Source: a virus. From it: 56,062 nt of DNA. The stretch lies in IMG/VR virus record IMGVR_UViG_3300020473_001840, positions 1 to 56,062 of that record, one strand, 5' to 3'. The position numbers and the translations under genes are program-made. Every line of letters starts with the position of its first letter. Within the stretch, counting starts at the first letter, position 1. Under the pieces are notes generated by a model that was given only the letters and a program-made list of their open reading frames with translations, was not told the origin of the DNA and ran no database searches. Positions 719 to 13,801 of this stretch are shown here, in pieces.

Positions 719-2008
719 ATGACAAAAAAGAAAATTTTGGTCTTATCTGACCACCCCTTATCTCCGTCTGGTGTAGGTACTCAGACAAAATATATGATTG
801 AAGCTCTTTTAGAAACTGGAAGATATAAATTCATTTGTTTAGGCGGGGCTATGAAGCATGTTGATTATAGGCCACAAAAAGTTGATCCCTTTGGCGAAGA
901 TTGGATGATTTATCCAGTTGATGGGTATGGAACAGACGAAATAATTCGCTCTATATTGCAAAAAGAGCGCCCCGATGCAATTTGGTTTATGACTGATCCT
1001 AGATTTTACGGATGGCTTTGGGAAATCGAAAATGAAGTGCGCGCGCATATCCCAATGATTTATTACCACGTGTGGGATAATTTTCCTGCACCGTCTTTTA
1101 ATGGTGGTTTTTATAGATCTACAGATAAGGTGGTCGCTATCTCTAAAGTCACGCAAAGTATTTTAGAAAGCGTAGCTCCTTCGGTAGATTCTGAATATCA
1201 TCCACATGCAGTAGATTCAAGTATTTTTAGAAAATATAAGAAAGATACTCCTGAATTTGATAGTGTCGGTAAAATGCGGTTTCAATTATTTAATAATACA
1301 TCTGCAAATATACAAAATATGCGCAAAAAGATATTTTTCTGGAATAACAGAAATGCTCGCAGAAAACAAAGCGGAACTTTAATTTGGTGGTTCAAAGAGT
1401 TTCTAGATGACGTAGGTCACGATCAGGCATGTCTTTTGATGCATACAGATGCAAAAGATCCTCATGGTCAAGATTTGCCACATCTTATAGGCCATTTAGG
1501 AGTCGGTCAAGGTCAAGTGTTTCTTTCAACTGAAAAAATCCCACCACAAGATTTAGCTAGTATGTATAATATGGCTGATTTTACTATTAATATTTCTGAT
1601 GCAGAAGGGTTTGGATTATCTACTTTAGAATCTCTTTCCTGTGGGACTCCTATTATTGTTAATATGACCGGCGGTTTACAAGAACAAGTCACCAATGGTA
1701 CGGACTGGTTCGGATGGGGAATTCAGCCGTCTTCTAAGGCAGTCATTGGCTCTTTGCAGGTGCCTTATATTTACGAAGATAGAATTTCACAAGAAGATTT
1801 TCATAATACGATGAAAAAAGCTCTTAATATTACCCAGAAGAGGTATAATAAAATGTGTAAATTGGGCATGAAGCATGTTAACGATAATTACAATTTTCTC
1901 ACATACAAAAAGAGATGGGTAGAAATTATGGATTCTGTTATTGAAAATAATGGTTCTTGGGAAACACGTAAAAATTACAAGCGCTGGCATCTACTGGAGG
2001 TAGCATGA
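719..2008 (+). CDS. GT4-type (GT-B) glycosyltransferase
   Basis: Product of 429 residues, the usual length for a GT-B enzyme. An N-terminal SPSGVGTQTKYM segment near residue 15 resembles the glycine-rich loop of GT4 acceptor domains. The C-terminal half has the nucleotide-sugar E-x7-E signature in DAEGFGLSTLE near residue 295, followed by SCGTPIIV and a GG loop. It should transfer a sugar from a nucleotide donor in the cytoplasm; donor and acceptor cannot be read. GAGGAA lies just before the ATG. Its stop overlaps the next gene by ATGA, so the two are translationally coupled. First gene of the glycan island. Confidence 0.85.
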   Translation: MTKKKILVLSDHPLSPSGVGTQTKYMIEALLETGRYKFICLGGAMKHVDYRPQKVDPFGEDWMIYPVDGYGTDEIIRSILQKERPDAIWFMTDPRFYGWLWEIENEVRAHIPMIYYHVWDNFPAPSFNGGFYRSTDKVVAISKVTQSILESVAPSVDSEYHPHAVDSSIFRKYKKDTPEFDSVGKMRFQLFNNTSANIQNMRKKIFFWNNRNARRKQSGTLIWWFKEFLDDVGHDQACLLMHTDAKDPHGQDLPHLIGHLGVGQGQVFLSTEKIPPQDLASMYNMADFTINISDAEGFGLSTLESLSCGTPIIVNMTGGLQEQVTNGTDWFGWGIQPSSKAVIGSLQVPYIYEDRISQEDFHNTMKKALNITQKRYNKMCKLGMKHVNDNYNFLTYKKRWVEIMDSVIENNGSWETRKNYKRWHLLEVA

Positions 2009-3255
2009 AAAAGAAAGTTCTTATTAAAGGTCCTATCCTAACTCGTTCTGGATATGGCGAGCAGGCACGTTTTGCTTTAAGAGCACTGCGCAGTCAGCCG
2101 GAAGTTTTTGAAATATTTGTTCAGCCAATTATCTGGGGTCAAACCTCATGGCTGATTGAAAACGATGAAGAAAGATTATGGCTTGATCAAACCATAGAAA
2201 AAACTATTTCTTATATTCAACAAGGAGGTCAATTTGATATTTCTTTACAAGTTACTATTCCTCCGGAGTGGGAAGCGCTTGCTCCAGTTAATATTGGATA
2301 TACAGCGGGAGTCGAGACTACAAAAGCGCATCATGCTTGGATTCAAAAAGGAAATCAAATGGATAAAATCATATTTGTTTCTAATCATTCAAGACAAGTT
2401 TTTGAAACTTCGAAGTATCAAGGAACCAACAATCAAACGGGTCAGGAAATTTTTTTACAGTCCACTTCGCCACTAGAGGTTGTAAATTATCCCGCTAAAG
2501 TTCACGAAAGCTTACCAGAGCTTGAGCTTGAATTAACAACATCTTTCAATTTTCTAACAGTTGCGCAATTCGGAATAAGAAAAAATTTAGAAAATACAAT
2601 TAAATGGTTTTTAGAAGAATTCATTGACGATGACGTTGGGCTTGTGGTGAAAACCAATCTTGCAAAGAATTGTTTGTTAGATAGAGAATTAGTAACAGCA
2701 CGTTTGCGTGCCCTCGTCACTGGCCAGAAGCCAGAGCGAAAATGCAAAGTGTATCTTTTGCACGGCGACATGACTGATGATGAGATTCATGCTTTATATG
2801 ATCATTCTGATATACATGCGATGTTGTGCTTGACTCACGGAGAAGGTTATGGTCTTCCTATGTTTGAAGCGGCATATTCTGGTATGCCTGTTGTATGTCC
2901 TGGGTGGTCTGGTCAGCTAGACTTTTTATTGAGTGAGACTGGCGAAGAAAAGTTTTACAATGTAAGCTATGATGTGCAGCCAGTACAAGAAGAAGCTGTT
3001 TGGGACGGTGTGATTATGGCTGAATCAATGTGGTGTTATGCGCGCGCATCTTCAGCAAAAAAGACCATGAGACAGTGTTACGAAGACGTTATCAATAATA
3101 AAGGTATCGCAAGTCAAAGCAAAGAATATGCTCAACAGCTTCATGAAAGATTTGAAGAAAATAAACTATATAAGCAATTTTGCGACACAATCTATAGCCC
3201 GACGACAGAAGATCAACAGTGGCTGGATGACTTGTCCAAGATAGAATTATTATGA
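2005..3255 (+). CDS. GT4-type glycosyltransferase
   Basis: Product of 416 residues. The N terminus has GPILTRSGYGEQAR, a GT-B acceptor-domain loop. The C-terminal donor domain carries THGEGYGLPMFEAA near residue 277, with the E-x7-E pair, then GMPVVCPGWSG. It resembles the preceding gene in domain order but is clearly divergent. The start ATG overlaps the upstream stop by four bases and its own stop overlaps the next gene in the same way, so three glycosyltransferases form one coupled unit. Donor sugar unknown. Confidence 0.85.
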   Translation: MKKKVLIKGPILTRSGYGEQARFALRALRSQPEVFEIFVQPIIWGQTSWLIENDEERLWLDQTIEKTISYIQQGGQFDISLQVTIPPEWEALAPVNIGYTAGVETTKAHHAWIQKGNQMDKIIFVSNHSRQVFETSKYQGTNNQTGQEIFLQSTSPLEVVNYPAKVHESLPELELELTTSFNFLTVAQFGIRKNLENTIKWFLEEFIDDDVGLVVKTNLAKNCLLDRELVTARLRALVTGQKPERKCKVYLLHGDMTDDEIHALYDHSDIHAMLCLTHGEGYGLPMFEAAYSGMPVVCPGWSGQLDFLLSETGEEKFYNVSYDVQPVQEEAVWDGVIMAESMWCYARASSAKKTMRQCYEDVINNKGIASQSKEYAQQLHERFEENKLYKQFCDTIYSPTTEDQQWLDDLSKIELL

Positions 3256-4103
3256 CTGTAGTAGGGTTTGTATCTGATTTTTTTAGAGAAGATCTTTTAG
3301 GAGGCGCCGAAAGTAACGATAATAATTTAATAAATTATCTTAATCAATACTTCGAAGTTAAAAAAATCAAAAGTGCAAACTTTTCTTTAAAAAATGTTTC
3401 CGATTGTGATGCACTAATAATCAGTAATTTTTTGTTTGTTCAAGACGAAGTATTACGCGCCGTAGTTAAATCTAATAAGTATATTATCTATGAGCATGAT
3501 CACAAGTATGTATCGACCAGAGATCCCGGCAAATTTTTAAACTTTAAAATACCAACAAAGCATTTAGTTTACAGAGAACTTTATGAAAAAGCAGATACAG
3601 TGGTGGTGCTAACGGAAATTTGCAAAAAAGTTTTAGATGAGAATTTACCTTTAGTAAATACTCACAGTATAGGATGCAGCTTGTGGTCAGATAATACTTT
3701 TAAACTTTTATCGTCTTTAAACAAAAACACGTCTTCTAAAGATTTGTGTGTTATGAAAAGCGCCAATCCCACTAAAAATTATAAAAACACTATAGATTTT
3801 TGTAAAACAAATAAATTAGATCCAGATTCGATAGAAAGCAATGATTATGAGGAATTTCTAAAAATCATGTCTGAATATAAAAGATTCTTATTTATACCGA
3901 CTGTGTTAGAAACTTTCTCTCGTATTTGCGCCGAAGCAAAAATGTTAAACTTGTCTGTTATGACTAATAAAAAATTAATTGGATTTTTTAGTGAAAATTA
4001 TAGCAGTCTTAGCGGTGATGAACTTATTAGCACCCTTAAAGAAAAAAATGATAAAGCGTATATGTTTTTTCGAAAAAAGTTGGAGGAGATTTGCCAGCAA
4101 TAA
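3252..4103 (+). CDS. divergent GT-B glycosyltransferase (GT4-like)
   Basis: Product of 283 residues, shorter than usual GT4 enzymes. The N terminus contains LLGGAESND near residue 16, the glycine-rich loop of the acceptor domain. TVLETFSRICAEAKML near residue 217 retains the E-x7-E donor-binding pair. The middle is compressed, so this is a minimal or degenerate GT-B protein. The final 13 bases overlap the next gene. It is the third member of the coupled glycosyltransferase run. It could be catalytically weak; the motif suggests it still binds a nucleotide sugar. Confidence 0.68.
   Translation: MTVVGFVSDFFREDLLGGAESNDNNLINYLNQYFEVKKIKSANFSLKNVSDCDALIISNFLFVQDEVLRAVVKSNKYIIYEHDHKYVSTRDPGKFLNFKIPTKHLVYRELYEKADTVVVLTEICKKVLDENLPLVNTHSIGCSLWSDNTFKLLSSLNKNTSSKDLCVMKSANPTKNYKNTIDFCKTNKLDPDSIESNDYEEFLKIMSEYKRFLFIPTVLETFSRICAEAKMLNLSVMTNKKLIGFFSENYSSLSGDELISTLKEKNDKAYMFFRKKLEEICQQ
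4082..4088 (+). promoter_or_regulatory. strong Shine-Dalgarno for a TTG start
   Basis: GGAGGAG sits 2 bases before a TTG codon at 4091 and inside the end of the upstream gene. No ATG occurs near the N terminus of the epimerase frame, and the NAD-binding motif begins only six residues in. This strong site therefore decides the start as TTG. Confidence 0.7.
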
Positions 4104-4951
4104 TTACAGGCGCCGCCGGATTTATAGGCTCTCACCTGAAAAACAAATTGGGATCAAAAACTAAATGTTGTGATCCGGCAGATTTATCAATGATGTGTCC
4201 TTCGACGCTGGAAGAAATTATCAACAATAAGAAATTGTCCATTGAGGCTGTATTTCATCTTGGCGCTATTTCTTCAACTACAGAAAGTAACATTATTAAA
4301 CTTACTGATAATAATATTTTATTTAGTTGTCGTCTTTTAGACGCGTGTATTAAAAATAATATTCCGTTTGTGTATGCGTCATCTGCATCTGTTTACGGCG
4401 CCGGTAAGCATGGCTTTGAAGAGGATGTTTCGCTATCGCCTCTTAACTATTATGCAATTAGCAAAGCATCGTTTGATATGTATGTTAATCAAAAAATAAA
4501 AGATAATCCATTAGCAAAAATTGTGGGTTTAAGATATTTTAACGTATACGGCAAAAATGAAGAGCACAAAAAAGACATGGCTAGCCCAGTCCACAAATTC
4601 TGGAAACAGGCCAACGATACTGGAATTATAAAAGTTTTTGAAGGTAGTGAAGAGTTTTATCGAGATTTTATTCATGTTGATGATGTGGTAAACATCACCT
4701 ATAATGCTCAATATTTTACTAATTCTGGAATCTATAATGTAGGCACGGGAAAAAGCCGTAGCTTTATGGACGTTGCAGAAATAATTGCTTCAATATGCAA
4801 GGCAGAAATCAAACAAATTCCGTTTCCTAATCATCTTGCAGATAAATACCAAAAGTATACTCAAAGTAATAATAATAAAATAATAAACGCCGGCATAACT
4901 GAAAAATATACTACTTTAGAAAATGGTATAAGGGAAGTAATAAGTGATTAA
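4091..4951 (+). CDS. hldD: ADP-L-glycero-D-manno-heptose 6-epimerase-like
   Basis: A 286-residue extended SDR protein. Seen: TGAAGFIGSHL for NAD(P) binding, FHLGAISSTTE, YASSASVYG, a Tyr-x3-Lys catalytic pair in YYAISK near residue 119, RYFNVYG, HKKDMASP, RDFIHVDDV, NVGTG and IPFPNHL. The SSTTE, HK-MAS and IPFP blocks are hallmarks of HldD rather than general epimerases. HldD converts ADP-D,D-heptose to ADP-L,D-heptose, the donor for LPS inner core. The next two genes encode HldE-like halves, which supports the assignment. The start is TTG behind a strong ribosome site; no ATG alternative fits. The frame overlaps the upstream gene by 13 bases. Confidence 0.85.
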   Translation: MPAIITGAAGFIGSHLKNKLGSKTKCCDPADLSMMCPSTLEEIINNKKLSIEAVFHLGAISSTTESNIIKLTDNNILFSCRLLDACIKNNIPFVYASSASVYGAGKHGFEEDVSLSPLNYYAISKASFDMYVNQKIKDNPLAKIVGLRYFNVYGKNEEHKKDMASPVHKFWKQANDTGIIKVFEGSEEFYRDFIHVDDVVNITYNAQYFTNSGIYNVGTGKSRSFMDVAEIIASICKAEIKQIPFPNHLADKYQKYTQSNNNKIINAGITEKYTTLENGIREVISD

Positions 4952-5342
4952 AGTTTTCACAAATGGCTGTTTTGACATAATTCATCCCGGCCACTTGGGG
5001 ATGTTAAAATATTGCGCTTCTCTTGGAGATCACCTAATGGTTGGAATTGATTCCGATATGCGCGTAGCGCAAAACAAAGGCCTCCATAGGCCAATAAACA
5101 ATCAAGAAGTTAGAAAATTTATACTCATGAATTTTAAATGGGTAAATGATGTTACAATTTTCAATAGTGATGCTGAGCTAACAGCGCTTGTTTCTGATTA
5201 TAAGCCAGATTATATGATTGTTGGATCTGACTGGAAAGACAAAAAAGTTATTGGTTCTGAACACGCTAAATTAGTTGGTTTTTTTGATAGAATAGATGCA
5301 TACTCAACAACAAAAATTATTGAACGTATTACTAATCGGTGA
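4944..5342 (+). CDS. heptose 1-phosphate adenylyltransferase-like (HldE C-terminal half)
   Basis: A 132-residue nucleotidyltransferase with NGCFDIIHPGHL at 7-18, where His14-Pro-Gly-His17 is the ATP-binding HxGH motif, and later VGSDWKDK. The size and the GCFD motif match the cytidylyltransferase-like domain of HldE/RfaE, which makes ADP-D-glycero-beta-D-manno-heptose. Glycerol-3-phosphate cytidylyltransferases share the fold, so the substrate rests on context: an HldD-like gene precedes it and the HldE-like kinase follows. In most bacteria both activities are one polypeptide; here they are separate, overlapping frames in reversed order. The start is GTG at 4944, overlapping the hldD-like stop by 8 bases. 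Confidence 0.8.
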   Translation: MIKVFTNGCFDIIHPGHLGMLKYCASLGDHLMVGIDSDMRVAQNKGLHRPINNQEVRKFILMNFKWVNDVTIFNSDAELTALVSDYKPDYMIVGSDWKDKKVIGSEHAKLVGFFDRIDAYSTTKIIERITNR

Positions 5343-6078
5343 TAGTTGTGAAGATGTTTATCATTATGGGACATGCGATCGCATTAGCCCAGAAGCCCCA
5401 GTGCCTATTTTTAATGAAACTTCTAAAGTTATTAAAAAAGGAATGTCGTCTAATGTGCGATTAAATCTAGAAGCATTGGGTATTTTTGTGACTCATTATA
5501 CAAATAATGAAAAAATCAGTAAACATCGATTTGTGGATTCTAGACATAATCAACATCTTTTGAGATGGGATGAGGGTGAAGAAAAACAGATTGAATTGTT
5601 TAATGTTGATTTTTTACAATTAGTAAAGCAGAGTATGCCCGATGCAGTAGTTATTAGTGATTATGATAAAGGGTTTTTAAGCTTTGAAGTTTGTATCAAG
5701 ATTGTTGATTTTTGTAAACAATATGAAATACCTATTTTTGTCGATACTAAGAAAAAAGATTTGACATGTTATAATAATTGTGTTATAAAAATAAATGAAA
5801 AAGAATTCTCAAATATTGAAAACTTTCCTGTAGATTCTGAATTTGTTATAACATTAGGTGAGAACGGCGCTCGCTACAAAAATCAAATTTTCAAAACAAC
5901 GCCGGTCGAAGTTTTTGATGTATGCGGAGCAGGAGATGTATTTTTATCAGCACTTGTGTACGGATATTTAAAAACAAATTGCATTGCCGACGCTATTCCA
6001 ATAGCTAATAAACTAGCAGCTATATCGGTAACACACATGGGAACTTACGTTTTAACTAAAAAGGACATTAATCAATAA
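5296..6078 (+). CDS. heptose 7-phosphate kinase-like (HldE N-terminal half, PfkB family)
   Basis: A 260-residue PfkB-family kinase. The N terminus has GDSCEDVYHYG and RISPEAPVPIF, a segment very typical of HldE/RfaE kinases. The C terminus holds DVCGAGDVF near residue 210 with the catalytic Asp of the GAGD anion hole. The usual GGAxNVA segment reads GMSSNVRLN, so the sugar-binding glycines are partly lost. It is about 50 residues shorter than bacterial HldE kinase domains. The expected role is phosphorylation of D-glycero-beta-D-manno-heptose 7-phosphate at C1. The ATG at 5296 overlaps the upstream gene by 47 bases; a later non-ATG start is possible. Confidence 0.8.
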   Translation: MHTQQQKLLNVLLIGDSCEDVYHYGTCDRISPEAPVPIFNETSKVIKKGMSSNVRLNLEALGIFVTHYTNNEKISKHRFVDSRHNQHLLRWDEGEEKQIELFNVDFLQLVKQSMPDAVVISDYDKGFLSFEVCIKIVDFCKQYEIPIFVDTKKKDLTCYNNCVIKINEKEFSNIENFPVDSEFVITLGENGARYKNQIFKTTPVEVFDVCGAGDVFLSALVYGYLKTNCIADAIPIANKLAAISVTHMGTYVLTKKDINQ

Positions 6079-6080
6079 AC

Positions 6081-6413
6081 ATGACTTATGTATTTGATAT
6101 AGACGGTACAATCTGTACCACCACAGAGGGTGAATACTCTCAGGCCGAGCCCTATGAAGACCGTATAAGAAAAGTAAATAATTTATACGAAGAGGGACAT
6201 ACAATAATTTTTCAAACAGCAAGAGGTATGGGCAGAAGCGGCAATTCCACTGCTCTTGCATATCATTTATTCGAAAAAGGAACAAAAAAACAATTAGAAA
6301 AGTGGGGAGTAAAATATCATAGCTTATTTTTAGGTAAACCTGCTGGAGATGTGTATATAGACGATAAGGGAATTAAAGATGAAGACTTCTTTACCAATGA
6401 AACACGTAGATAA
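6081..6413 (+). CDS. short HAD-family sugar phosphatase candidate
   Basis: A 110-residue protein with the HAD motif FDIDGT (Asp6, Asp8), a TARG motif II region, a LGKP lysine loop and YIDDK motif III-IV. Such cap-less HAD proteins are common in capsule and LPS loci. In this setting it may stand in for GmhB, which removes the C7 phosphate from heptose bisphosphate, but it lacks the cysteine-rich zinc site of classical GmhB. A second HAD domain occurs at the C terminus of the gene at 11267-12250 and could do this instead. The end overlaps the next gene by 35 bases. Confidence 0.75.
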   Translation: MTYVFDIDGTICTTTEGEYSQAEPYEDRIRKVNNLYEEGHTIIFQTARGMGRSGNSTALAYHLFEKGTKKQLEKWGVKYHSLFLGKPAGDVYIDDKGIKDEDFFTNETRR

Positions 6414-6738
6414 AGGCTGGGGCTGGGAACGATGGATTGTAAATTGTGAAGAATATTGCGGTAAGCTTTTATTTTTTGAACAAGGTAAAAGGTGTTCCTG
6501 GCATTATCATAAATTAAAAGATGAGGTTTTTTATTTACAATCAGGATTAATGATAGTAAAATATTCAGACGAGGATGATATAGAAAAAGCTCAACAAATA
6601 ATTTTAAACCCAGGAGATAACTTTCATGTTTACAGAGGTCTCCGACATCAAATGGTGGCGCTCCAGCCATCGGAGCTTTTTGAGTTTTCTACACAACACT
6701 TTGATAGCGACAGTCATCGTATTATCAAAGGAGATTAA
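6379..6738 (+). CDS. cupin protein, mannose-6-phosphate isomerase type II-like
   Basis: A 119-residue single cupin. Motif 1 is GKRCSWHYHKLKDEVFYLQSG, with metal ligands His42, His44 and Glu49. Motif 2 is PGDNFHVYRGLRHQM, giving the fourth His near residue 90. A GWGWE segment near the N terminus is shared with type II phosphomannose isomerase and mannose-1-phosphate guanylyltransferase cupin domains. It could provide mannose 6-phosphate for GDP-mannose, the substrate of the Gmd encoded further on, or act as a sugar isomerase or epimerase. The ATG at 6397 is an alternative start. Confidence 0.75.
   Translation: MKTSLPMKHVDKGWGWERWIVNCEEYCGKLLFFEQGKRCSWHYHKLKDEVFYLQSGLMIVKYSDEDDIEKAQQIILNPGDNFHVYRGLRHQMVALQPSELFEFSTQHFDSDSHRIIKGD
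6727..6734 (+). promoter_or_regulatory. Shine-Dalgarno fixing the start at 6740
   Basis: AAAGGAGA lies 5 bases before the ATG at 6740. The reading frame is open further upstream to 6626, but that part lies inside the cupin gene and has no ribosome site. This site marks the true start. Confidence 0.75.
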
Positions 6739-6739
6739 A

Positions 6740-7435
6740 ATGATTTATAATATGGATTGGTTTATTAATAATATTAAAAATAAAGTACCTTTTGCTTATG
6801 CTAGATTTAATGATGGCGAGATGATGGCGATTGATCAAGTAGGATCAGTAGTGGCCCGCGGCGATCAGTACGTTGATGCATCTTTGAGTGCTGCATTGCT
6901 TAACGCTATCAAGCATAAACAAAAAAATTATTATATTGGTGTTCCTTGCTCTTTGTGTTATCCGCGCTATAATAAACTTGCTAATGAGTTGATAGGTGAT
7001 TATGAACTAAAAACATTAGCTGTTGTAACAACTAATCGTAACTGGAAAAATTTTGTAGATACGTTTCCTGCTGCGATGCAAGATAGAAAAATGATTTGGA
7101 TCGGAGGCAATGATCAGAATATAGATGCGATAAAAGATTTAGGAATTGATATTAAAAAAGCCGCTCGCCTCCCACGGCAAAATAGTTGGGACTATTATAG
7201 AGCAATTTATTCTACAATGCCGCAGTACTTCGAACCGGGTGATGTAGTAGGTATTTCGCTAGGCCCTCTGGCGCGAATCTTAGCGCGCCAATGGTTTGAG
7301 CAAAATCCCGAGGTTACTTTTGTTGATATGGGTAGTAATTTTGATCCATTTACTCGTAATGTGCGCCATAACTGTCATAAGGGATGGGAACAGACTGGAT
7401 TTAATTTAGCTAAGCCGTGCAAGGAGTGCAATTAA
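6740..7435 (+). CDS. GT-D fold glycosyltransferase (DUF1792-like)
   Basis: Product of 231 residues from the chosen ATG. ARFNDGEMMAI at 21-31 matches the R-F-x-D-G-E signature of the DUF1792/GT-D glycosyltransferase domain, in which the D-x-E pair (Asp25, Glu27) binds the metal and nucleotide sugar. Later segments are VVTTNRNW, WIGG and GDVVGISLGPLARIL, consistent with an alpha/beta fold. Family knowledge: the founding GT-D enzyme adds glucose during glycosylation of serine-rich proteins in streptococci; other members occur in polysaccharide loci. The next gene starts immediately after the stop. Confidence 0.72.
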   Translation: MIYNMDWFINNIKNKVPFAYARFNDGEMMAIDQVGSVVARGDQYVDASLSAALLNAIKHKQKNYYIGVPCSLCYPRYNKLANELIGDYELKTLAVVTTNRNWKNFVDTFPAAMQDRKMIWIGGNDQNIDAIKDLGIDIKKAARLPRQNSWDYYRAIYSTMPQYFEPGDVVGISLGPLARILARQWFEQNPEVTFVDMGSNFDPFTRNVRHNCHKGWEQTGFNLAKPCKECN

Positions 7436-8158
7436 ATGAAAATATTTTTAATAACTTCTAATAAATATACACATGTATGTCCGATTAATATTCATTTTTT
7501 GAACAAATATTGGCCTAATCAAGAAATAGTATTATTAGGGTATGAAGAAGTATCTAAACTGCAAAATTTGCCTGAGAATGTAGTAAGAAAAAATCTAGGC
7601 ACTCAAAATGATTTTGGTACAAGCTGGACTAACGGATTAATACCTTTTTTTAATAATATTGAAGATGAATATTTCATAATTTTATTAGATGATTTGATAG
7701 TTTTAAATGAAGTTGACTTACACCGTATTAATTTGCTTGAAGAGCAATTTAAATCTGGAGATGCCGACAAAGCAATGATTGGCGGCGGCTTACCATTACA
7801 ATCTTCTACAAAAATTAACGAAGAGTTGTTATTATTTAATCAGGGAGTTGATTATCGTTGCTCACTTCATCCGGCCATTTGGACTAAAGAATATTTTTTA
7901 AAATATTTAAGACCAAATTTGTCCCCGTGGGAATTTGAAATGCACAACAATAACGCAGCAAAAGGCGACGGCTATCGAGTAATTGCTAACAACTACAGAT
8001 ATCCAGCTCAACAGCACCCTTTTTCTATATTAAATTTATACAATAAAGGTAAGCTTATGATTAATAACCGCGGCGATATTTTAGATAATCAACCCTCAAA
8101 ACGATTTTTTAATAAAGAGGATTTAATTTACATATGGGAGAAACTTAATGCGTCATAA
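7436..8158 (+). CDS. putative GT-A glycosyltransferase
   Basis: A 240-residue protein with an N-terminal FLITSN strand and, near residue 80, FIILLDDLIVL, whose Asp-Asp pair resembles the DxD metal site of GT-A enzymes. A C-terminal CSLHPAIWTKEYF and PWEFE segment looks like the acceptor or catalytic region of such enzymes. I do not recognise a specific family. ATG begins one base after the previous stop, and the last 11 bases overlap the next gene. Sugar unknown. Confidence 0.6.
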   Translation: MKIFLITSNKYTHVCPINIHFLNKYWPNQEIVLLGYEEVSKLQNLPENVVRKNLGTQNDFGTSWTNGLIPFFNNIEDEYFIILLDDLIVLNEVDLHRINLLEEQFKSGDADKAMIGGGLPLQSSTKINEELLLFNQGVDYRCSLHPAIWTKEYFLKYLRPNLSPWEFEMHNNNAAKGDGYRVIANNYRYPAQQHPFSILNLYNKGKLMINNRGDILDNQPSKRFFNKEDLIYIWEKLNAS

Positions 8159-8762
8159 TCCGTGGAGAATTGTCGAAATGTTTGAAGAGTCGGTAGCTGA
8201 CTATTGTGGCTCGAAATACGCGGTAGCTACAGATAATTGCACAGACGCTCTTTTGATGTGCTGCAGATATTTTAAAGTACAAGAGGTCACTATTCCGTGT
8301 CGTACATATTTATCGGTACCTCAATCTATTATGCATGCCGGCGGCACTGTGAAACTTAAAGATTATGAGTGGAAAGGCATCTACCAACTTGAGCCTTATC
8401 CAATTTATGATGCGGCTAAAAGATTTACTTCGGGAATGTATATTCCGGGAACATTTATGTGTCTTTCTTTTCAGACTAAAAAAAATCTTAAGATTGGGAA
8501 AGGCGGCATGATTTTAACTGACGATAAAGAGGCAGTAGATTGGTTTAAATTAGCGCGTTATGAAGGTCGCGACCACGTATCTGATGATATTGAAATTTGT
8601 GGTTGGAACATGTATATGACTCCCGAGCAAGCCGCTCGCGGCTTAACGCTTCTTCAGGTATTCCCCGAACATCACGAGGATCAGGCTGAGGATCCCTGGT
8701 ACCGCGACTTGCGTTCAATGCCCTTATTTAAAGATTGTGAAATAGTAGGAGAAAAATCATGA
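8148..8762 (+). CDS. mini DegT/DnrJ/EryC1-type PLP enzyme
   Basis: Only 204 residues, against about 370 for the family. The N terminus has the cofactor-binding region (FEESVADYCGSKYAV, then TDNCTDALL). The central part jumps to YPIYDAAKRF, which holds the Asp that contacts the PLP ring, and then SFQTKKNLKIGKGGMI, which contains the expected Schiff-base Lys. About 50 residues in the middle and 130 at the C terminus are missing. It is not a frameshift: the stop couples by ATGA to an unrelated methyltransferase gene. It could be a sugar aminotransferase stripped to its core, or a non-catalytic relic. Confidence 0.72.
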   Translation: MRHNPWRIVEMFEESVADYCGSKYAVATDNCTDALLMCCRYFKVQEVTIPCRTYLSVPQSIMHAGGTVKLKDYEWKGIYQLEPYPIYDAAKRFTSGMYIPGTFMCLSFQTKKNLKIGKGGMILTDDKEAVDWFKLARYEGRDHVSDDIEICGWNMYMTPEQAARGLTLLQVFPEHHEDQAEDPWYRDLRSMPLFKDCEIVGEKS

Positions 8763-9358
8763 GCGCCGCCGGCGAAAAACCAAACAAAGAGAACATAAAG
8801 GACATGTGGGTAGTTCTTAAGGATTATGGATTTACAGTTTATTGTATTGATCAGCCGGAATATGTTGTTCAGTGGGACAAACACTTTAAAGATTTTTCTG
8901 GTTCTATTTTGGAGATTGGTGCTGGTAATGGTTTCATGGCGCGCCATATTGTAGATAATAATCCAGTAGATTATACAATTTTAGATATTCCCGATAATGT
9001 TCGAAGGCTACAAAGCAGCTCAGAATCCGCCATTGCAAATTACGAACAAATTAAATTTATTCCTTCTACTGATTATAAAAAAATATTTAAACATTCCTAT
9101 GATATATTAATTTCGCATCAATGCTTGTCCGAGACTCCTGCTTACTATTATTCTGAAATTTGGAACAATCTTGATATTAAAAATTGTTTTATAATCGATA
9201 ATTCAACAGACAAAAAAGATCCGGACTATAATGAAAAGCTAAAAAATTGGGTAGAAAATAGCTTTCAATCTACCGAAGGCACACATCGCAATTATAATGT
9301 TGATGGATATGACAAAAAAGGTATTATGGTTTATATTGGAAAAGGTAAGAAAACATGA
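8759..9358 (+). CDS. class I SAM methyltransferase
   Basis: A 199-residue protein with the SAM-binding motif I ILEIGAGNGFMARHI near residue 51 and YTILDIPD as motif II. The C-terminal half has ISHQCLSETP in the motif IV position. The NAD/SAM-fold signature is clear; the substrate is not. Placed in a glycan island, it probably methylates a sugar hydroxyl. Its ends overlap neighbours by ATGA on both sides, so it is coupled to the mini-DegT gene and to a second methyltransferase. Confidence 0.75.
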   Translation: MSAAGEKPNKENIKDMWVVLKDYGFTVYCIDQPEYVVQWDKHFKDFSGSILEIGAGNGFMARHIVDNNPVDYTILDIPDNVRRLQSSSESAIANYEQIKFIPSTDYKKIFKHSYDILISHQCLSETPAYYYSEIWNNLDIKNCFIIDNSTDKKDPDYNEKLKNWVENSFQSTEGTHRNYNVDGYDKKGIMVYIGKGKKT

Positions 9359-9960
9359 GCTTTATATTTAAATTATCGGATTCTCCGAATTTAATTCCTG
9401 TATTGGGCCAGGGTCTTCAAAAATATAATTCAGCCGATGATGAATCTATTGACCCAACAAACACAATTGAAGTGTTCAGTGATGAGATCTGGCCATCTAT
9501 TAATAAATATTTCAATCAAGATGTCCGAATGCTAGATATAGGGTGTGGAAATGGGCGCTTTGACGCTTTTTTAAGCAACCATGTGGGTCATATAGTGGCC
9601 ATCGACGCTTTTCGAGAAATGAACAAAGTACACTGTAGGCAAAATATTGAATTTGTTAAAACCACACTTCAAAAATACACCGGTGATCCGTTCGATATCA
9701 TATTTTTATTTGGGGTTTTTTATTTACAGGAAAGCTGGGGAACTGCGTCAGCATTTGAAAAGATGATCTCTATGCTTAAAGATGGAGGTGTGATAATCTC
9801 AGTTGATGACAAAAAACGAGATTTGCGCCACGATGTAAGCGATCGCCTGCCGCATGGGTATTATAATCTTGATTCATTATGCAACAGATATGGTGGAGAA
9901 ATTATTGAATCATTCGTTCAAAGAAACAACGTACATCGAATAACAGTGATTAAAAAATGA
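9355..9960 (+). CDS. class I SAM methyltransferase
   Basis: A 201-residue protein with MLDIGCGNGRFDAFLS near residue 60 as motif I and IVAIDAF as motif II. DIIFLFGVFYLQ is the likely motif IV and GGVIISVDD motif V. It is not a close copy of the preceding methyltransferase. Likely modifies a glycan residue; the substrate cannot be read. Coupled by ATGA overlaps to both neighbours. Confidence 0.78.
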   Translation: MSFIFKLSDSPNLIPVLGQGLQKYNSADDESIDPTNTIEVFSDEIWPSINKYFNQDVRMLDIGCGNGRFDAFLSNHVGHIVAIDAFREMNKVHCRQNIEFVKTTLQKYTGDPFDIIFLFGVFYLQESWGTASAFEKMISMLKDGGVIISVDDKKRDLRHDVSDRLPHGYYNLDSLCNRYGGEIIESFVQRNNVHRITVIKK

Positions 9961-10622
9961 CTATTGAAAACCCTTTTGGAAATTATAAAAATGCACATTT
10001 AGGACAATCAGCTATTTTATACGGCTCTGGTCCTTCTATTATGGATTTTAAAACTAATAAAAATGTCGTTAAAGTTGGCCTAAACGAGCAAATTTATTTA
10101 GATATAAACTTAGATTATTGGTTTATGGGAGATACTTTTCCACGCAATCCAGCAAAGTTTATAAATTGTTTTGATGATTACAATAACTATAAACCAAATA
10201 TAACAAAATTTATTAGATATCAATTATGGGGCGAAAGAGGAAGAATGCCTCTTGGAATGAAACATAGTACATATTATACATGCAATTTAGGCGGAATACC
10301 TAATGAATGTTTGTTTGAAAAAGATATTTCCCAAGGCCCCCTTATGGGTGTTGCCTCTATTTCTTTTGAAGCATTACAATTCATGCTATATGCGGGATTT
10401 AAAAATATCTATTTAGTTGGTCATGATTGTGATTATTCGTTCGGAACTTTTAGAACAGAAATTGATCATAAGTCAGAAGGCGTATTAGTGTTGCGTTATT
10501 GGAAGTTGGTTAAAGATTGGATCAGCGTTCACTATCCAGATGTTAAAATACATTGTATTAATCCAGTCGCTTTAAAAATTTTCCAAGAAGCTAGCGAGGC
10601 AGATATTATAGAAAATGAATAG
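9957..10622 (+). CDS. Maf/DUF115 or Cst-sialyltransferase-like glycosyltransferase
   Basis: A 221-residue protein. The N terminus has AILYGSGPSIMDF, the G-x-GPS loop shared by the DUF115/Maf family and GT42 (Cst) sialyltransferases. KVGLNEQIYLD then DYWFMGD follow, where those families have a nucleotide-binding Asn and strand. GVASISFEALQFMLYAGFKNIYLVGHDC near residue 135 matches their second conserved block. Both families use CMP-nonulosonic acids or related donors. The next gene, overlapping by 8 bases, encodes a CMP-sugar synthetase, which favours transfer of a nonulosonic-acid-like sugar. Short for Maf. Confidence 0.6.
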   Translation: MTIENPFGNYKNAHLGQSAILYGSGPSIMDFKTNKNVVKVGLNEQIYLDINLDYWFMGDTFPRNPAKFINCFDDYNNYKPNITKFIRYQLWGERGRMPLGMKHSTYYTCNLGGIPNECLFEKDISQGPLMGVASISFEALQFMLYAGFKNIYLVGHDCDYSFGTFRTEIDHKSEGVLVLRYWKLVKDWISVHYPDVKIHCINPVALKIFQEASEADIIENE

Positions 10623-11274
10623 TGTAGCATGCTTTATTCCAATAAAAAAGAGAAGCACCAGAGTTCCTCAAAAAAACTTTAGACTCTTGAATAATAAACG
10701 CTTGTTTGAATATATAATTGACGCTGCAATTGAATCTAAGTGTTTTAATAAAATATATGTTGATACTGATAGCGACGAAGTGAAAGAGTATTGTATATAT
10801 AAAAATATTGATATAATCAATAGAGATCCGAATCTTGCAAAAGACAGCGCTAATGGTAATGATCTATTAAACTATTGGTTTGATACTGTCCCTGTTCATG
10901 ATTATTATTTTCAGCTATTTGCTACTTCTCCATTTACCACCTCGACAACTATAAAAGAATGTGTTAAAATATTAAAAGAAAATAATAACTATGATTCAAT
11001 ATTTACAGCGTATAAAAATTGTGGATGGTATTGGTTTGAAGGCGCGCCCATAAATTATGATCCATCTGAACTACCCAGAAGTCAAGATGCTAAGCAAGTT
11101 TTTAACGAAACAACCGCTTTGTACGGAATTAGCCGCACTGCACTAGTAGAATATAAATGCCGAATTGGTAATAAGCCTTATTTCTATTTTGTTGGCGATA
11201 TTGAATCCATGGACATTGATTCAGAGTTTGATTTAAAAATAGCAGAGTTAATTGCAAAGGAGTATTATGATTAA
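10615..11274 (+). CDS. acylneuraminate (CMP-nonulosonate) cytidylyltransferase-like
   Basis: A 219-residue protein with IPIKKRSTRVPQKNF at 8-22, the basic glycine-poor form of the NeuA nucleotide loop, then VDTDSDEV, and INRDPNLAKDSANGND, the RP-LA-D block of the family. ESMDIDSEFDLKIAE near the C terminus is the conserved metal-binding DIDs region. It should activate a nonulosonic or other acidic sugar with CTP to give a CMP-sugar. No NeuB-type synthase is in the window, so the free sugar would come from the host or from genes elsewhere in the phage. KdsB is less likely, as its loop differs. Confidence 0.78.
   Translation: MNSVACFIPIKKRSTRVPQKNFRLLNNKRLFEYIIDAAIESKCFNKIYVDTDSDEVKEYCIYKNIDIINRDPNLAKDSANGNDLLNYWFDTVPVHDYYFQLFATSPFTTSTTIKECVKILKENNNYDSIFTAYKNCGWYWFEGAPINYDPSELPRSQDAKQVFNETTALYGISRTALVEYKCRIGNKPYFYFVGDIESMDIDSEFDLKIAELIAKEYYD
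11256..11262 (+). promoter_or_regulatory. Shine-Dalgarno fixing the start at 11267
   Basis: AAAGGAG is followed after 4 bases by ATG at 11267. The frame stays open to a TTG at 11252, but that codon precedes this site and would add five residues without a ribosome site of its own. Confidence 0.75.
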
Positions 11275-12250
11275 TATTGAAAATATTGGCCAAAAATTTA
11301 TCGAAATTGTAAAGTCCCCGGAATGGGAGGCGCTTCAAGAAAAGTTCAATAACTGCGATGATATTTATGTTTTAGGCCATGGAGGTAATTTAGCAGTAGC
11401 TGATCATACAGCAGTAGATATAACAAGACTTTCAAATGGACAAAAAAACGCTATTTGTCCAAGTTCTGGCATTGTGGCTACATCGTTTATCAATGATTCT
11501 AGTTTTGATCAATGGATGGTTAATTGGCTTGATTGTAGAACTGCTGTAAGAACCAAAGCACAAATGAAAAGATCATTAGTATACGGAATATCATCGTCTG
11601 GAAAATCTACTGATGTTATTAAGGCGTTGCAATGGGCTTCCCAAAACGGAATGCAGACAGCTCTTGTGACTGGCCAGCCTATGAATATTCCAGTCCCAGG
11701 TCTCACGGTTGTAGAGCTAGGCACTCAATATTACCACTCTACCGAGGTATTAACTCTTTTGCTGCAGTATCAACTTACGCATGGTTCGGGCCGCGAATGC
11801 CCCTCAATAGGTCATAACAGTTCAGATGACCTAAAGAAAGCGAACTGGAAAGGAGGAAAAATCCGAGAACACAGCTATCCAGACGAACAAATCAATATTG
11901 GTGTTGATTTTGATGGCGTTGTTCATAAAAATTCAAAGGGTTATTATGATGGTACAATATACGATGAGCCAATTCAGGGCTCGAAAGAGGCCTTACGGCG
12001 CTTGTCTGAAAAATATACTATTATAATGTTTAGCGCTAAAGCGCGAACTGATCGAGGTCTTGTGAATGGTAAGACAGGCATTGAACTGATATGGGAGTGG
12101 CTTGAAAAGCATGATATGGCTCAATATGTAAGCAAAGTAACTGCAGAAAAACCACGAGCATGCTTTTATATTGATGATAAAGCAATTCGTTTTGAAGATT
12201 CGTGGAAACAATTATTTGACAAATTAGAACATTTAGGTTATGATATTTAA
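11267..12250 (+). CDS. SIS-domain (GmhA-like) isomerase fused to a HAD phosphatase domain
   Basis: A 327-residue two-domain protein. Residues about 25-180 form a SIS domain: VLGHGGNLAVADHTAVDITR resembles the GmhA phosphosugar loop, and GISSSGKSTDVIKAL matches its ISTSGNS block. Residues about 205-327 form a HAD domain with GVDFDGVVH (DxD), MFSAKAR and CFYIDDKAIRFED. GmhA makes D-glycero-D-manno-heptose 7-phosphate, and a HAD enzyme later removes the C7 phosphate, so the fusion joins two steps of the heptose route. The catalytic Glu and one His of E. coli GmhA do not align cleanly (Asp stands at the Glu), so another phosphosugar substrate is possible. Confidence 0.75.
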   Translation: MINIENIGQKFIEIVKSPEWEALQEKFNNCDDIYVLGHGGNLAVADHTAVDITRLSNGQKNAICPSSGIVATSFINDSSFDQWMVNWLDCRTAVRTKAQMKRSLVYGISSSGKSTDVIKALQWASQNGMQTALVTGQPMNIPVPGLTVVELGTQYYHSTEVLTLLLQYQLTHGSGRECPSIGHNSSDDLKKANWKGGKIREHSYPDEQINIGVDFDGVVHKNSKGYYDGTIYDEPIQGSKEALRRLSEKYTIIMFSAKARTDRGLVNGKTGIELIWEWLEKHDMAQYVSKVTAEKPRACFYIDDKAIRFEDSWKQLFDKLEHLGYDI

Positions 12251-12269
12251 ATAAAAACGGAGTTTATCA

Positions 12270-12977
12270 ATGAAATTACTTTTAACCACAAGAGCCGATC
12301 AAACCGTAGAGGGATGGGCTCAATTAGTTCATCCAGTGTTTCGAAAATATGCTGAACGCGTCAGTGCAGATTTCTTAATTTTAGATGAGTCATTAAATTG
12401 TAATGCTGCCCGTTCTGGTATCGGCGATGGTCTTTGGCATTTTAGAATTATGAAGCACTATGATCTTCACGAAGAATATGATAGAATTTTACATCTTGAT
12501 AGCGATATTCTGTTAACTCCTGAGTGCCCTAATTTATTTGACCATGTTCCGTACGATAGTATCGCGACTGTGTATGAAGATGTGGGTTCAAGAAAACCAC
12601 AAAGAGTACAGTGTATGTTAAATGCGCAAAATCAGTTTGGAGACATTGGGTGGCGCGATGGCTACATTAATACAGGTGTTTTTCTTACTTCGAAGTGTCA
12701 TCGCGATATTTTTCAACCAATAAATGGTAGATTTTTTACCGATTGGGGCACCGACGATGTGCACATTGGCTATCAAATCAAGAAACTTGGATATAAGGTA
12801 GCCCCATTGGATTACCAGTTTAACCATATGACAATGTTTTCAGAAGCATGGAACGGTAGTCCTGACCGATTTGATTCTCATATAATTCACTATGCTGGTC
12901 GCGGCATTTTTGATGAAGGAGTTGCAACAGATAAGTTGCATCAAGCCTCTTTAGATTATAAGAGATTATATGAATGA
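12270..12977 (+). CDS. GT8-like glycosyltransferase
   Basis: A 235-residue GT-A protein. YDRILHLDSDILLT near residue 70 carries the D-x-D metal motif in the form typical of GT8 (LDxD). DGYINTGVFL follows, the conserved NxG segment, and later TDWGTDDVHIG and HIIHYAG, matching the C-terminal His metal ligand region. GT8 enzymes add glucose or galactose, retaining, often to LPS core. A 19-base gap with CGGAG precedes the ATG, and the stop overlaps the next gene by ATGA. Confidence 0.8.
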   Translation: MKLLLTTRADQTVEGWAQLVHPVFRKYAERVSADFLILDESLNCNAARSGIGDGLWHFRIMKHYDLHEEYDRILHLDSDILLTPECPNLFDHVPYDSIATVYEDVGSRKPQRVQCMLNAQNQFGDIGWRDGYINTGVFLTSKCHRDIFQPINGRFFTDWGTDDVHIGYQIKKLGYKVAPLDYQFNHMTMFSEAWNGSPDRFDSHIIHYAGRGIFDEGVATDKLHQASLDYKRLYE

Positions 12978-13801
12978 AAAAACTTATTGCAGGCCCATGG
13001 ACGGGCGAGTTCGGGTGGGAATTGTTTGCGTGGCAAGCTTATATTCGGGCACTTTCAACAAAATTTGATCACACAACAATAATTTCTCGCGTTAATTCGC
13101 GCGCCTTATATAGTGATTTTGCAGATAATTATATTGCATACGAGCCACAAGGCGGCAATCCAGATGCTTTTTTTATGCACAACTTAGATATTAGAAGCGC
13201 ATTTAAAGACGCAGTTAGAAAAAACAATATTGTTCTTACTGAGGGTACTTCGGTAGTTTTGCCTCGTCGTATAGGATTCCCTCCGCATACTCATTACACA
13301 CAAATGGTAATGTTTGGCAAACATACTATTAAACCTAAATATGTTGTTTTGGGAGACACCGGAAAACGAAAGTATAAAAGATATGATTATATTTTTCATC
13401 TTCGCCGGCGGCCGCTGCGCCAAGAAGATAACTGGAGCACCGAAAATTGGATTAAACTGAAAAACCTTTTGGGCAATAAAAAAATTGCATGTATTGGTAC
13501 CAAAAGTGAATCTGGCCACATTGAAGGAACAGCAGATCTTCGAGATATGAAACTAGAAAAGCTGCTTCCTATACTTCGAAGTGCTGATTGCGCATTTGGT
13601 TCGTCATCTGGCCCTATGCATCTTGCGAGTCTTTGCGGGCTTCCGCATGTAGTATGGTCTATACCTCAGAACAAAATTAGATATGAAGATAACTGGAATC
13701 CTTTACAGACGCCAGTTTTATTTAATAGTGACTATGACTGGCATCCAGCGCCTGATTATATTTACGAAAAGTTTTTACAATGGAGACACAATAAAAAATG
13801 A
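12974..13801 (+). CDS. GT9-like (heptosyltransferase-type) glycosyltransferase
   Basis: A 275-residue GT-B protein. AGPWTGEFGWELFAWQ at the N terminus is a glycine-rich acceptor loop. SADCAFGSSSGPMHLASLCGLPHVVW near residue 205 closely follows the GT9 donor motif (SGPMHLA, with His and Pro in place). FHLRRRPLRQEDNWS near residue 145 provides the basic donor-phosphate contacts. GT9 enzymes are the LPS heptosyltransferases that use ADP-heptose, so this is the natural consumer of the pathway encoded upstream. It is somewhat short, and a non-heptose donor cannot be excluded. Confidence 0.72.
   Translation: MKKLIAGPWTGEFGWELFAWQAYIRALSTKFDHTTIISRVNSRALYSDFADNYIAYEPQGGNPDAFFMHNLDIRSAFKDAVRKNNIVLTEGTSVVLPRRIGFPPHTHYTQMVMFGKHTIKPKYVVLGDTGKRKYKRYDYIFHLRRRPLRQEDNWSTENWIKLKNLLGNKKIACIGTKSESGHIEGTADLRDMKLEKLLPILRSADCAFGSSSGPMHLASLCGLPHVVWSIPQNKIRYEDNWNPLQTPVLFNSDYDWHPAPDYIYEKFLQWRHNKK

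What the first reader, a model, noticed from the sequence alone, without database searches (positions are those of the whole stretch)
4091..13801. Near-complete phage ADP-heptose pathway with a GT9-like transferase
HldD-like (4091), HldE nucleotidyltransferase half (4944), HldE kinase half (5296), GmhA-like SIS domain (11267) and HAD phosphatases (6081 and the 11267 C terminus) cover every step from sedoheptulose 7-phosphate to ADP-L,D-heptose. A GT9-like gene at 12974 belongs to the heptosyltransferase family. ADP-heptose is both an LPS donor and a known bacterial signal to mammalian innate immunity, so a viral route is notable.
Basis: partly seen in the sequence, partly recalled or inferred. 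Interest (0 to 1): 0.85.

Follow-up and report, generated by a model that had tools for sequence, protein, structure and literature searches.

The report
Phage heptose pathway with substitute isomerase
This virus fragment carries a compact five-gene set that very probably builds ADP-heptose, a sugar bacteria use on their surface; related phages carry the same set, and the usual first enzyme (GmhA) appears to be replaced by a small unrelated metal-binding protein that nobody seems to have recognised.

Summary
HldD (4091-4951) passes NCBI's cut-off for ADP-heptose epimerase and keeps all four catalytic residues. The adenylyltransferase (4944-5342) and kinase (5296-6078) match the two HldE halves best. 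An EcbF-type HAD phosphatase (6081-6413) follows. As a phage trait this is not new: P-SSM2, S-CAM1, S-SSM7 and other cyanophages carry the cassette.

The SIS-HAD fusion (11252-12250) has a GmhA-like fold, but its relatives sit beside CMP-ulosonate cytidylyltransferases, keto-deoxy-acid aldolases and once a true KdsA; 7 of 10 of those records lack HldE genes. GmhA is absent from 16 of 16 large phage records that carry the cassette.

It accompanies the kinase in 42 of 48 complete viral contexts and 31 of 31 cyanophage or marine records. It is fused to the HldE adenylyltransferase in two contigs. In two cyanophages it lies between HddA- and HddC-like genes of the GDP-heptose route. Its model (pLDDT 96) matches D-lyxose/D-mannose isomerases first and shares their metal site and essential K, E and D. 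Most likely it is a GmhA substitute, a cupin sedoheptulose-7-phosphate isomerase. This is inferred, not assayed.

The parts
4091..4951 (+). [quoted passage not shown]
   Evidence: TIGR02197 275.4 bits, over the curated cut-off; best PDB profile hits 1eq2/2x6t/4ej0 HldD; E. coli S116/Y140/K144/K178 kept as S98/Y121/K125/K160; start region read
4944..5342 (+). HldE-type heptose-1-phosphate adenylyltransferase, stand-alone domain, HPGH motif
   Evidence: TIGR02199 E 2.9e-31, phrog_7878 2.1e-42
5296..6078 (+). HldE-type heptose-7-phosphate kinase, stand-alone, short PfkB (260 aa), GAGD motif kept
   Evidence: TIGR02198 E 6.9e-42; best PDB 4e84 heptose 7-phosphate kinase 2.7e-26; 36-48% identical to cyanophage kinases
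6081..6413 (+). EcbF/BcbF-type HAD phosphatase, proposed heptose-1,7-bisphosphate 7-phosphatase (GmhB role). Its phage relatives are annotated 'phosphoheptose isomerase'
   Evidence: TIGR01689 44.8 bits, phrog_1238 1.7e-29; best PDB 9iqw capsule biosynthesis protein; in other cassettes a GmhB-type HAD is present instead
6379..6738 (+). Cupin, proposed metal-dependent sedoheptulose-7-phosphate isomerase replacing GmhA (H42, H44, E49, H90 metal site; K47, E102, D111)
   Evidence: co-occurrence, fusion to HldE adenylyltransferase, HddA-cupin-HddC, AF2 and Foldseek, profile alignment, residue counts
10615..11274 (+). CMP-ulosonate (PseF/KdsB-like) cytidylyltransferase; start of a second sugar route
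   Evidence: TIGR03584 81 bits, PF02348 75 bits
11252..12250 (+). SIS-HAD fusion; most likely isomerase plus phosphatase (KdsD/KdsC-like) of the CMP-ulosonate route, not GmhA
   Evidence: GmhA-like fold; neighbours in relatives are a CMP-sugar synthetase, an HpcH/HpaI aldolase and a KdsA; 7 of 10 records with it lack HldE kinase and adenylyltransferase
12270..12977 (+). GT8-like glycosyltransferase
   Evidence: PF01501 22.6 bits, just below the Pfam cut-off
12974..13801 (+). GT9-like glycosyltransferase (heptosyltransferase superfamily), acceptor unknown
   Evidence: family alignment A9, 4 of 5 members match PF01075, not the window protein itself
719..3255 (+). two GT4-type glycosyltransferases upstream of the cassette
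   Evidence: phrog_2170; PF00534 above cut-off for 719 and just below it for 2005

Best explanation
[quoted passage not shown] Proposed order of steps. (1) The cupin 6379 isomerises sedoheptulose 7-phosphate to D-glycero-D-manno-heptose 7-phosphate with a bound divalent metal, through a cis-enediol as in D-lyxose isomerases. (2) Kinase 5296 makes the 1,7-bisphosphate. (3) HAD 6081 removes the 7-phosphate. (4) Adenylyltransferase 4944 makes ADP-D,D-heptose. (5) HldD 4091 epimerises C6. Family membership for steps 2, 4 and 5 is shown; step 3 is inferred from family and position; step 1 is inferred from context, fold and active site. The product probably feeds the adjacent glycosyltransferases, which decorate either the host surface or the virion (inferred; the acceptor is unknown). 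The SIS-HAD at 11252 is not part of this unit.
For: HldD passes its equivalog cut-off and keeps its catalytic residues. HldE halves are best in their own families. The unit recurs: of 48 viral kinase loci with at least 4 kb on each side, 46 have the adenylyltransferase, 42 the cupin, 33 HldD, 24 the HAD, 2 a GmhB, 1 a GmhA-like SIS. No GmhA in 16 of 16 large phage records with the cassette, three of them whole cyanophages. Cupin-GmhB-adenylyltransferase-kinase-HldD gene runs in L054, L056, L071 and a cupin-adenylyltransferase fusion in L030 and L031. Among 50,697 phage records, all 31 cyanophage or marine records with the kinase have the cupin, and none of the 13 records found with E. coli GmhA does. 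In Bellamy and SynMITS9220M01 the cupin overlaps an HddA-like kinase (279-287 bits) and an HddC-like guanylyltransferase. The step shared by the ADP and GDP routes before the kinase is the isomerase. AF2 pLDDT 96.2; Foldseek's first six PDB hits are D-lyxose isomerases, and an archaeal phosphomannose isomerase is also among them. The profile alignment places H42/H44/K47/E49/H90/E102 on the D-lyxose isomerase motif. K47, E102 and D111 are invariant in 47 of 47; [quoted passage not shown] Cupin and kinase distances correlate as well as kinase and adenylyltransferase (Mantel r 0.56 and 0.54, 0 of 999 permutations).
Against: No biochemistry. Cupins are functionally diverse and D-lyxose isomerase acts on unphosphorylated sugar. 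Six of 48 loci lack a nearby cupin and still lack GmhA. SynMITS9220M01 also carries a GmhA-like SIS with a second HddA-like kinase. The HldE halves score below NCBI's strict cut-offs and the kinase lacks a segment around the PfkB lid. D111 is matched to D-lyxose isomerase by eye just beyond the end of the profile alignment. The window has its own SIS-HAD of GmhA-like fold, which could act on the same substrate.
Confidence: 0.62

Rival explanations
1. One reading: the SIS-HAD at 11252 is a GmhA (and second GmhB) and the cupin does something else, such as modifying the finished sugar.
For: The model's best folds are GmhA structures; profile match to E. coli GmhA 6.9e-10, with the phosphate-binding GISxSGxS loop kept; it lies within 6 kb of the cassette, and L085 and L012 carry it near the cassette too.
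Against: Catalytic E65 becomes D and the C-terminal catalytic His is not recovered. Seven of 10 records with it have no HldE kinase or adenylyltransferase. Its immediate neighbours are CMP-ulosonate synthetases, HpcH/HpaI aldolases and a KdsA above its cut-off. Nearly all cassettes lack it.
Confidence: 0.2
2. The cupin belongs to the heptose route but is not the ketose-aldose isomerase; it is a mutarotase or epimerase on heptose 7-phosphate or on NDP-heptose, and the host supplies GmhA.
For: KdgF cupins and the CapF cupin domain are also among the top folds. The ADP route uses the beta and the GDP route the alpha anomer (established knowledge), so anomer control could matter. The host genomes were not checked for GmhA.
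Against: The metal site plus K47/E102/D111 match aldose-ketose isomerases (PMC8378251). Cyanobacterial LPS, including marine Synechococcus WH8102 and CC9311, lacks heptose (PMC4515613), so hosts have little reason to keep GmhA.
Confidence: 0.2
3. The genes are decayed or packaging filler rather than a working pathway, a possibility raised for cyanophage LPS genes in PMC3037559.
For: No expression or product data; the genes are patchily distributed among phages.
Confidence: 0.05
4. The HldE/HldD-like enzymes act on a different sugar phosphate, for example a hexose.
For: HldE halves are below the equivalog cut-offs; part of the cassettes lack a nearby HldD.
Against: HldD acts at C6 of a heptose and passes its cut-off; no other kinase or adenylyltransferase family scores close; the same cupin accompanies a second, non-homologous heptose-7-phosphate kinase family, HddA.
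Confidence: 0.1

Closest known systems
Bacterial ADP-L-glycero-beta-D-manno-heptose pathway (E. coli GmhA, HldE, GmhB, HldD)
   Same: HldE kinase and adenylyltransferase families, HldD with all four catalytic residues, a HAD phosphatase
   Different: HldE is split into two genes; the phosphatase is EcbF-type; GmhA is missing from the unit and a cupin is present instead
Cyanophage 'LPS' cassette, T4-GC 304-308 (P-SSM2, S-SM2, S-SSM7, S-CAM1)
   Same: same five families (adenylyltransferase, kinase, HAD, cupin, HldD), proteins 36-66% identical
   Different: gene order differs (HldD first and on the same strand here); the window phage is a distant T4-like virus; those records call the HAD 'phosphoheptose isomerase' and the cupin 'cysteine dioxygenase' or 'nucleotidyltransferase'
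[quoted passage not shown] cyanophages Bellamy and SynMITS9220M01, Caulobacter phage Cr30
   Same: the same cupin sits between HddA- and HddC-like genes in two cyanophages; Cr30 has HddA-like plus GmhA
   Different: other kinase and nucleotidyltransferase families; not present in the window
D-lyxose/D-mannose isomerases (TsLI 7nzo, B. subtilis 2y0o) and cupin phosphomannose isomerases
   Same: fold, 3-His 1-Glu metal site, essential Lys and acidic residues; ketose to manno-type aldose chemistry
   Different: 119 aa single barrel without the extra helices; about 20% identity; substrate proposed to be a 7-carbon phosphate
Kdo pathway (KdsD, KdsA, KdsC, KdsB)
   Same: the SIS-HAD combines an isomerase-type and a phosphatase-type domain and lies next to CMP-ulosonate synthetases, once with KdsA
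   Different: in several loci an HpcH/HpaI aldolase stands in place of KdsA; no synthase is seen in the window

Membership tests
HldD (ADP-heptose 6-epimerase) | equivalog model above cut-off | tested here: met
   275.4 vs 274.6 bits
HldD (ADP-heptose 6-epimerase) | catalytic S116, Y140, K144, K178 | tested here: met
   S98, Y121, K125, K160
HldE adenylyltransferase and kinase | best family match among all NCBIfam models | tested here: met
   TIGR02199 2.9e-31, TIGR02198 6.9e-42
HldE adenylyltransferase and kinase | score above the curated equivalog cut-off | tested here: not met
   108 of 181.5 and 144 of 345 bits; filed as HldE-like, not as HldE equivalogs
GmhA | equivalog cut-off, catalytic Glu65 and C-terminal His | tested here: not met
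   33.8 of 209 bits; E65 replaced by D; His not recovered in the alignment
GmhA | SIS fold and phosphate loop | tested here: met
   model pLDDT only 67.8
GmhB | GmhB family match | tested here: not met
   HAD 6081 matches EcbF/BcbF instead
GT9 heptosyltransferase | PF01075 match | tested here: inconclusive
   4 of 5 family members match, best 1.7e-5, but not the window protein
D-lyxose isomerase-type cupin isomerase | 3-His 1-Glu metal site plus catalytic Lys, Glu, Asp | tested here: met
   with PMC8378251; D111 placed by motif beyond the profile alignment
D-lyxose isomerase-type cupin isomerase | PF07385 family match above cut-off | tested here: not met
   16.0 of 20.8 bits, E 0.0072; works like it, not filed as a member
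sedoheptulose-7-phosphate isomerase (activity) | conversion of the substrate | not testable with these tools
   needs an assay

The most novel reading that the evidence does not exclude
A virus-borne cupin, unrelated to GmhA, is the sedoheptulose-7-phosphate isomerase of both ADP-heptose and GDP-heptose routes in many T4-like aquatic phages, which thereby make heptose from a host metabolite even in hosts whose own LPS has none.
Probability: 0.58. Interest if true: 0.76.

Novelty: new variant of a known kind. Interest (0 to 1): 0.63.

Why it matters
GmhA is described as the first enzyme of glycero-manno-heptose synthesis (PMC5387315), and I found no second family in the papers searched. If the cupin does this step, it is a case of non-orthologous replacement, it fills the missing step in phage genomes annotated for many years, and it corrects two misleading annotations copied through phage databases ('phosphoheptose isomerase' on a HAD phosphatase, 'cysteine dioxygenase' on the cupin). 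It also raises a testable biological question: cyanobacterial LPS lacks heptose, so phages of those hosts would be making a sugar foreign to the host surface.

Tried and rejected
SIS-HAD as GmhA/GmhB fusion: kept only as a rival after the neighbourhood and presence tests. Bacterial origin of the cupin cassette: the genome-collection hits L100-L103, L106 and L107 look like phage contigs binned into MAGs; L104 and L105 (Halobacteriovorax MAG) carry the cupin without any cassette gene. In 299 genomes of one phylum no other strong copy linked to heptose genes was found; the 500-aa hits look like NeuB-like synthases with a C-terminal cupin, not ManC as I first thought (read from sequence, not tested). 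PDB profile search with the GT9-like family gave only chance hits. Host assignment was not possible: the baseplate protein is about 30% identical to Microcystis and Flavobacterium phages and another structural protein had no match. Literature searches for a cupin sedoheptulose-7-phosphate isomerase found nothing relevant. Cyanobacterial host genomes could not be searched for GmhA because no cyanobacterial handle was available.
Full report
OBSERVATION. The window is a 56,062-base linear IMG/VR virus record with baseplate-wedge and weak late-sigma matches of T4-like type. HldD, the HldE adenylyltransferase half and the HldE kinase half are each best matched by their own families, HldD above its curated cut-off. 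Its catalytic residues are all kept, and the closest solved structures of the phage HldD and kinase families are HldD and heptose-7-phosphate kinase. The five genes HldD, adenylyltransferase, kinase, HAD and cupin at 4091-6738 lie on one strand and overlap or abut.

PRIOR ART. tblastn against 50,697 phage records finds the kinase mainly in T4-like cyanophages and marine single-cell viruses, with HldD, adenylyltransferase, HAD and cupin beside it. PMC3037559 noted that clusters T4-GC 304, 305, 307 and 308 co-occur in P-SSM2, S-SM2 and S-SSM7 and called them LPS genes of unknown function; by the P-SSM2 record these are the adenylyltransferase, kinase, cupin and epimerase. PMC7378029 reports heptose genes in a cyanophage and PMC7029224 rfaE in pelagimyophages. 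A phage heptose route is therefore known.

THE MISSING GmhA. Over 48 viral kinase loci with full context, the adenylyltransferase is present in 46, the cupin in 42, HldD in 33, HAD or GmhB in 26, and a GmhA-like SIS in 1 (a 6-kb count gives 53 of 58 for the cupin and 2 of 58 for GmhA). None of 16 large phage records with the cassette, including three whole cyanophage genomes, has a GmhA match even at E 0.001. Features annotated 'phosphoheptose isomerase' in the cyanophages examined are the HAD protein with a DxDxT motif. SynMITS9220M01 is an exception: it carries a separate GmhA-like SIS with a second HddA-like kinase.

THE SIS-HAD AT 11252. Its N-terminal domain is GmhA-like in fold and by profile, but far below the GmhA cut-off and with E65 changed to D. 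Nine homologues were fetched. Their neighbours are PseF/KdsB-like CMP-sugar synthetases, in the contigs L088 to L092 an HpcH/HpaI aldolase directly upstream, and in L090 a KdsA above its cut-off. In the window the CMP-sugar synthetase gene overlaps the SIS-HAD gene. Seven of 10 records have no HldE kinase or adenylyltransferase (several are short fragments). It reads best as the isomerase-phosphatase of a CMP-ulosonate route.

THE CUPIN. Four lines point to the isomerase step. First, linkage: cupin and kinase co-occur in 31 of 31 cyanophage or marine phage records (the three other kinase records, one fecal contig and two records of a 735-kb phage, lack it), and the 13 records found with E. coli GmhA share none with the cupin. 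Second, fusion and operons: in L030 and L031 the cupin is fused to the HldE adenylyltransferase, and in L054, L056 and L071 cupin, GmhB, adenylyltransferase, kinase and HldD follow in that order (in L054 with a gap before the kinase). Third, a second pathway: in cyanophages Bellamy and SynMITS9220M01 the same cupin overlaps an HddA-like D-glycero-D-manno-heptose 7-phosphate kinase and an HddC-like guanylyltransferase. HldE and HddA kinases are unrelated, and the step they share upstream is the formation of heptose 7-phosphate from sedoheptulose 7-phosphate (established knowledge). Fourth, structure: the AF2 model (pLDDT 96.2) has D-lyxose isomerases as its six best PDB matches. The profile search had already listed D-lyxose, L-ribose and mannose-6-phosphate isomerases among other cupins. 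Profile alignment puts the HxHxxKxE motif, the second His and E102 on those of bacterial D-lyxose isomerases. K47, E102 and D111 are invariant in 47 of 47 and H42 in 46 of 47. [quoted passage not shown] D-lyxose isomerase chemistry, ketose to manno-type aldose, is the chemistry GmhA performs on a seven-carbon phosphate. The cupin diverged together with the kinase (Mantel r 0.56, 0 of 999); by itself this shows co-inheritance, not function.

WHAT IS SHOWN AND WHAT IS INFERRED. Shown: the families, their order, co-occurrence, fusion, active-site conservation. Inferred: activities, the identity of the phosphatase, and the use of the product. Glycosyltransferases of GT4, GT8-like and GT9-like type flank the unit. 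Cyanobacterial LPS lacks heptose (PMC4515613), so in those hosts the sugar is unlikely to serve ordinary core LPS; a modified host surface or a decorated virion are both possible. The host of the window phage is unknown.

VERDICT. The new point is the cupin: probably a non-homologous sedoheptulose-7-phosphate isomerase, testable with one complementation and one enzyme assay.

Noticed in passing
L002:10731-11054, L003:10728-11072 and other cyanophage records: RefSeq/PHROG name 'phosphoheptose isomerase' (phrog_1238) is attached to a small HAD phosphatase, and 'cysteine dioxygenase' (phrog_7851) to the cupin; both names mislead pathway reconstruction.
   Followed up: yes
L107:1888-3585, L002:7964-9646 and about 30 other loci: A NodU/CmcH-type carbamoyltransferase is the commonest extra neighbour of the cassette (37 genes in 30 loci), suggesting a carbamoylated sugar in many phages; none was recognised in the window.
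   Followed up: partly
L004, L101, L102, L103: Some cassettes lie beside transketolase-like genes and a class II aldolase family gene; the transketolase could bear on sedoheptulose phosphate supply.
   Followed up: no
L090:4289-8167: Phage contig with a KdsA above its curated cut-off, a CMP-ulosonate synthetase, an HpcH/HpaI aldolase and the SIS-HAD: a phage Kdo-like route.
   Followed up: partly
L100-L103, L106, L107: Contigs in archaeal, planctomycete and Rhodobacteraceae MAGs carry the cassette and look like phage contigs, probably binning contamination.
   Followed up: partly
L104 and L105 (about 8.0-8.3 kb): A Halobacteriovorax MAG holds two near-identical stretches with a stand-alone cupin of this family and no cassette gene nearby.
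   Followed up: no
window 8148-8762: DegT/DnrJ aminotransferase-like ORF of only 204 aa matching PF01041 in pieces; the same short form recurs in L085, L093, L100 and L012.
   Followed up: no
window 23039-29575 and 33343-43101: Giant ORFs of 2178 and 3252 aa without any PHROG match, in the structural half of the window.
   Followed up: no
INPHARED records OR845372, OR845414: Short 'phage' records (2.7-2.9 kb) carrying E. coli-like gmhA (97%) or an enterobacterial-type hldD; possibly host DNA.
   Followed up: no
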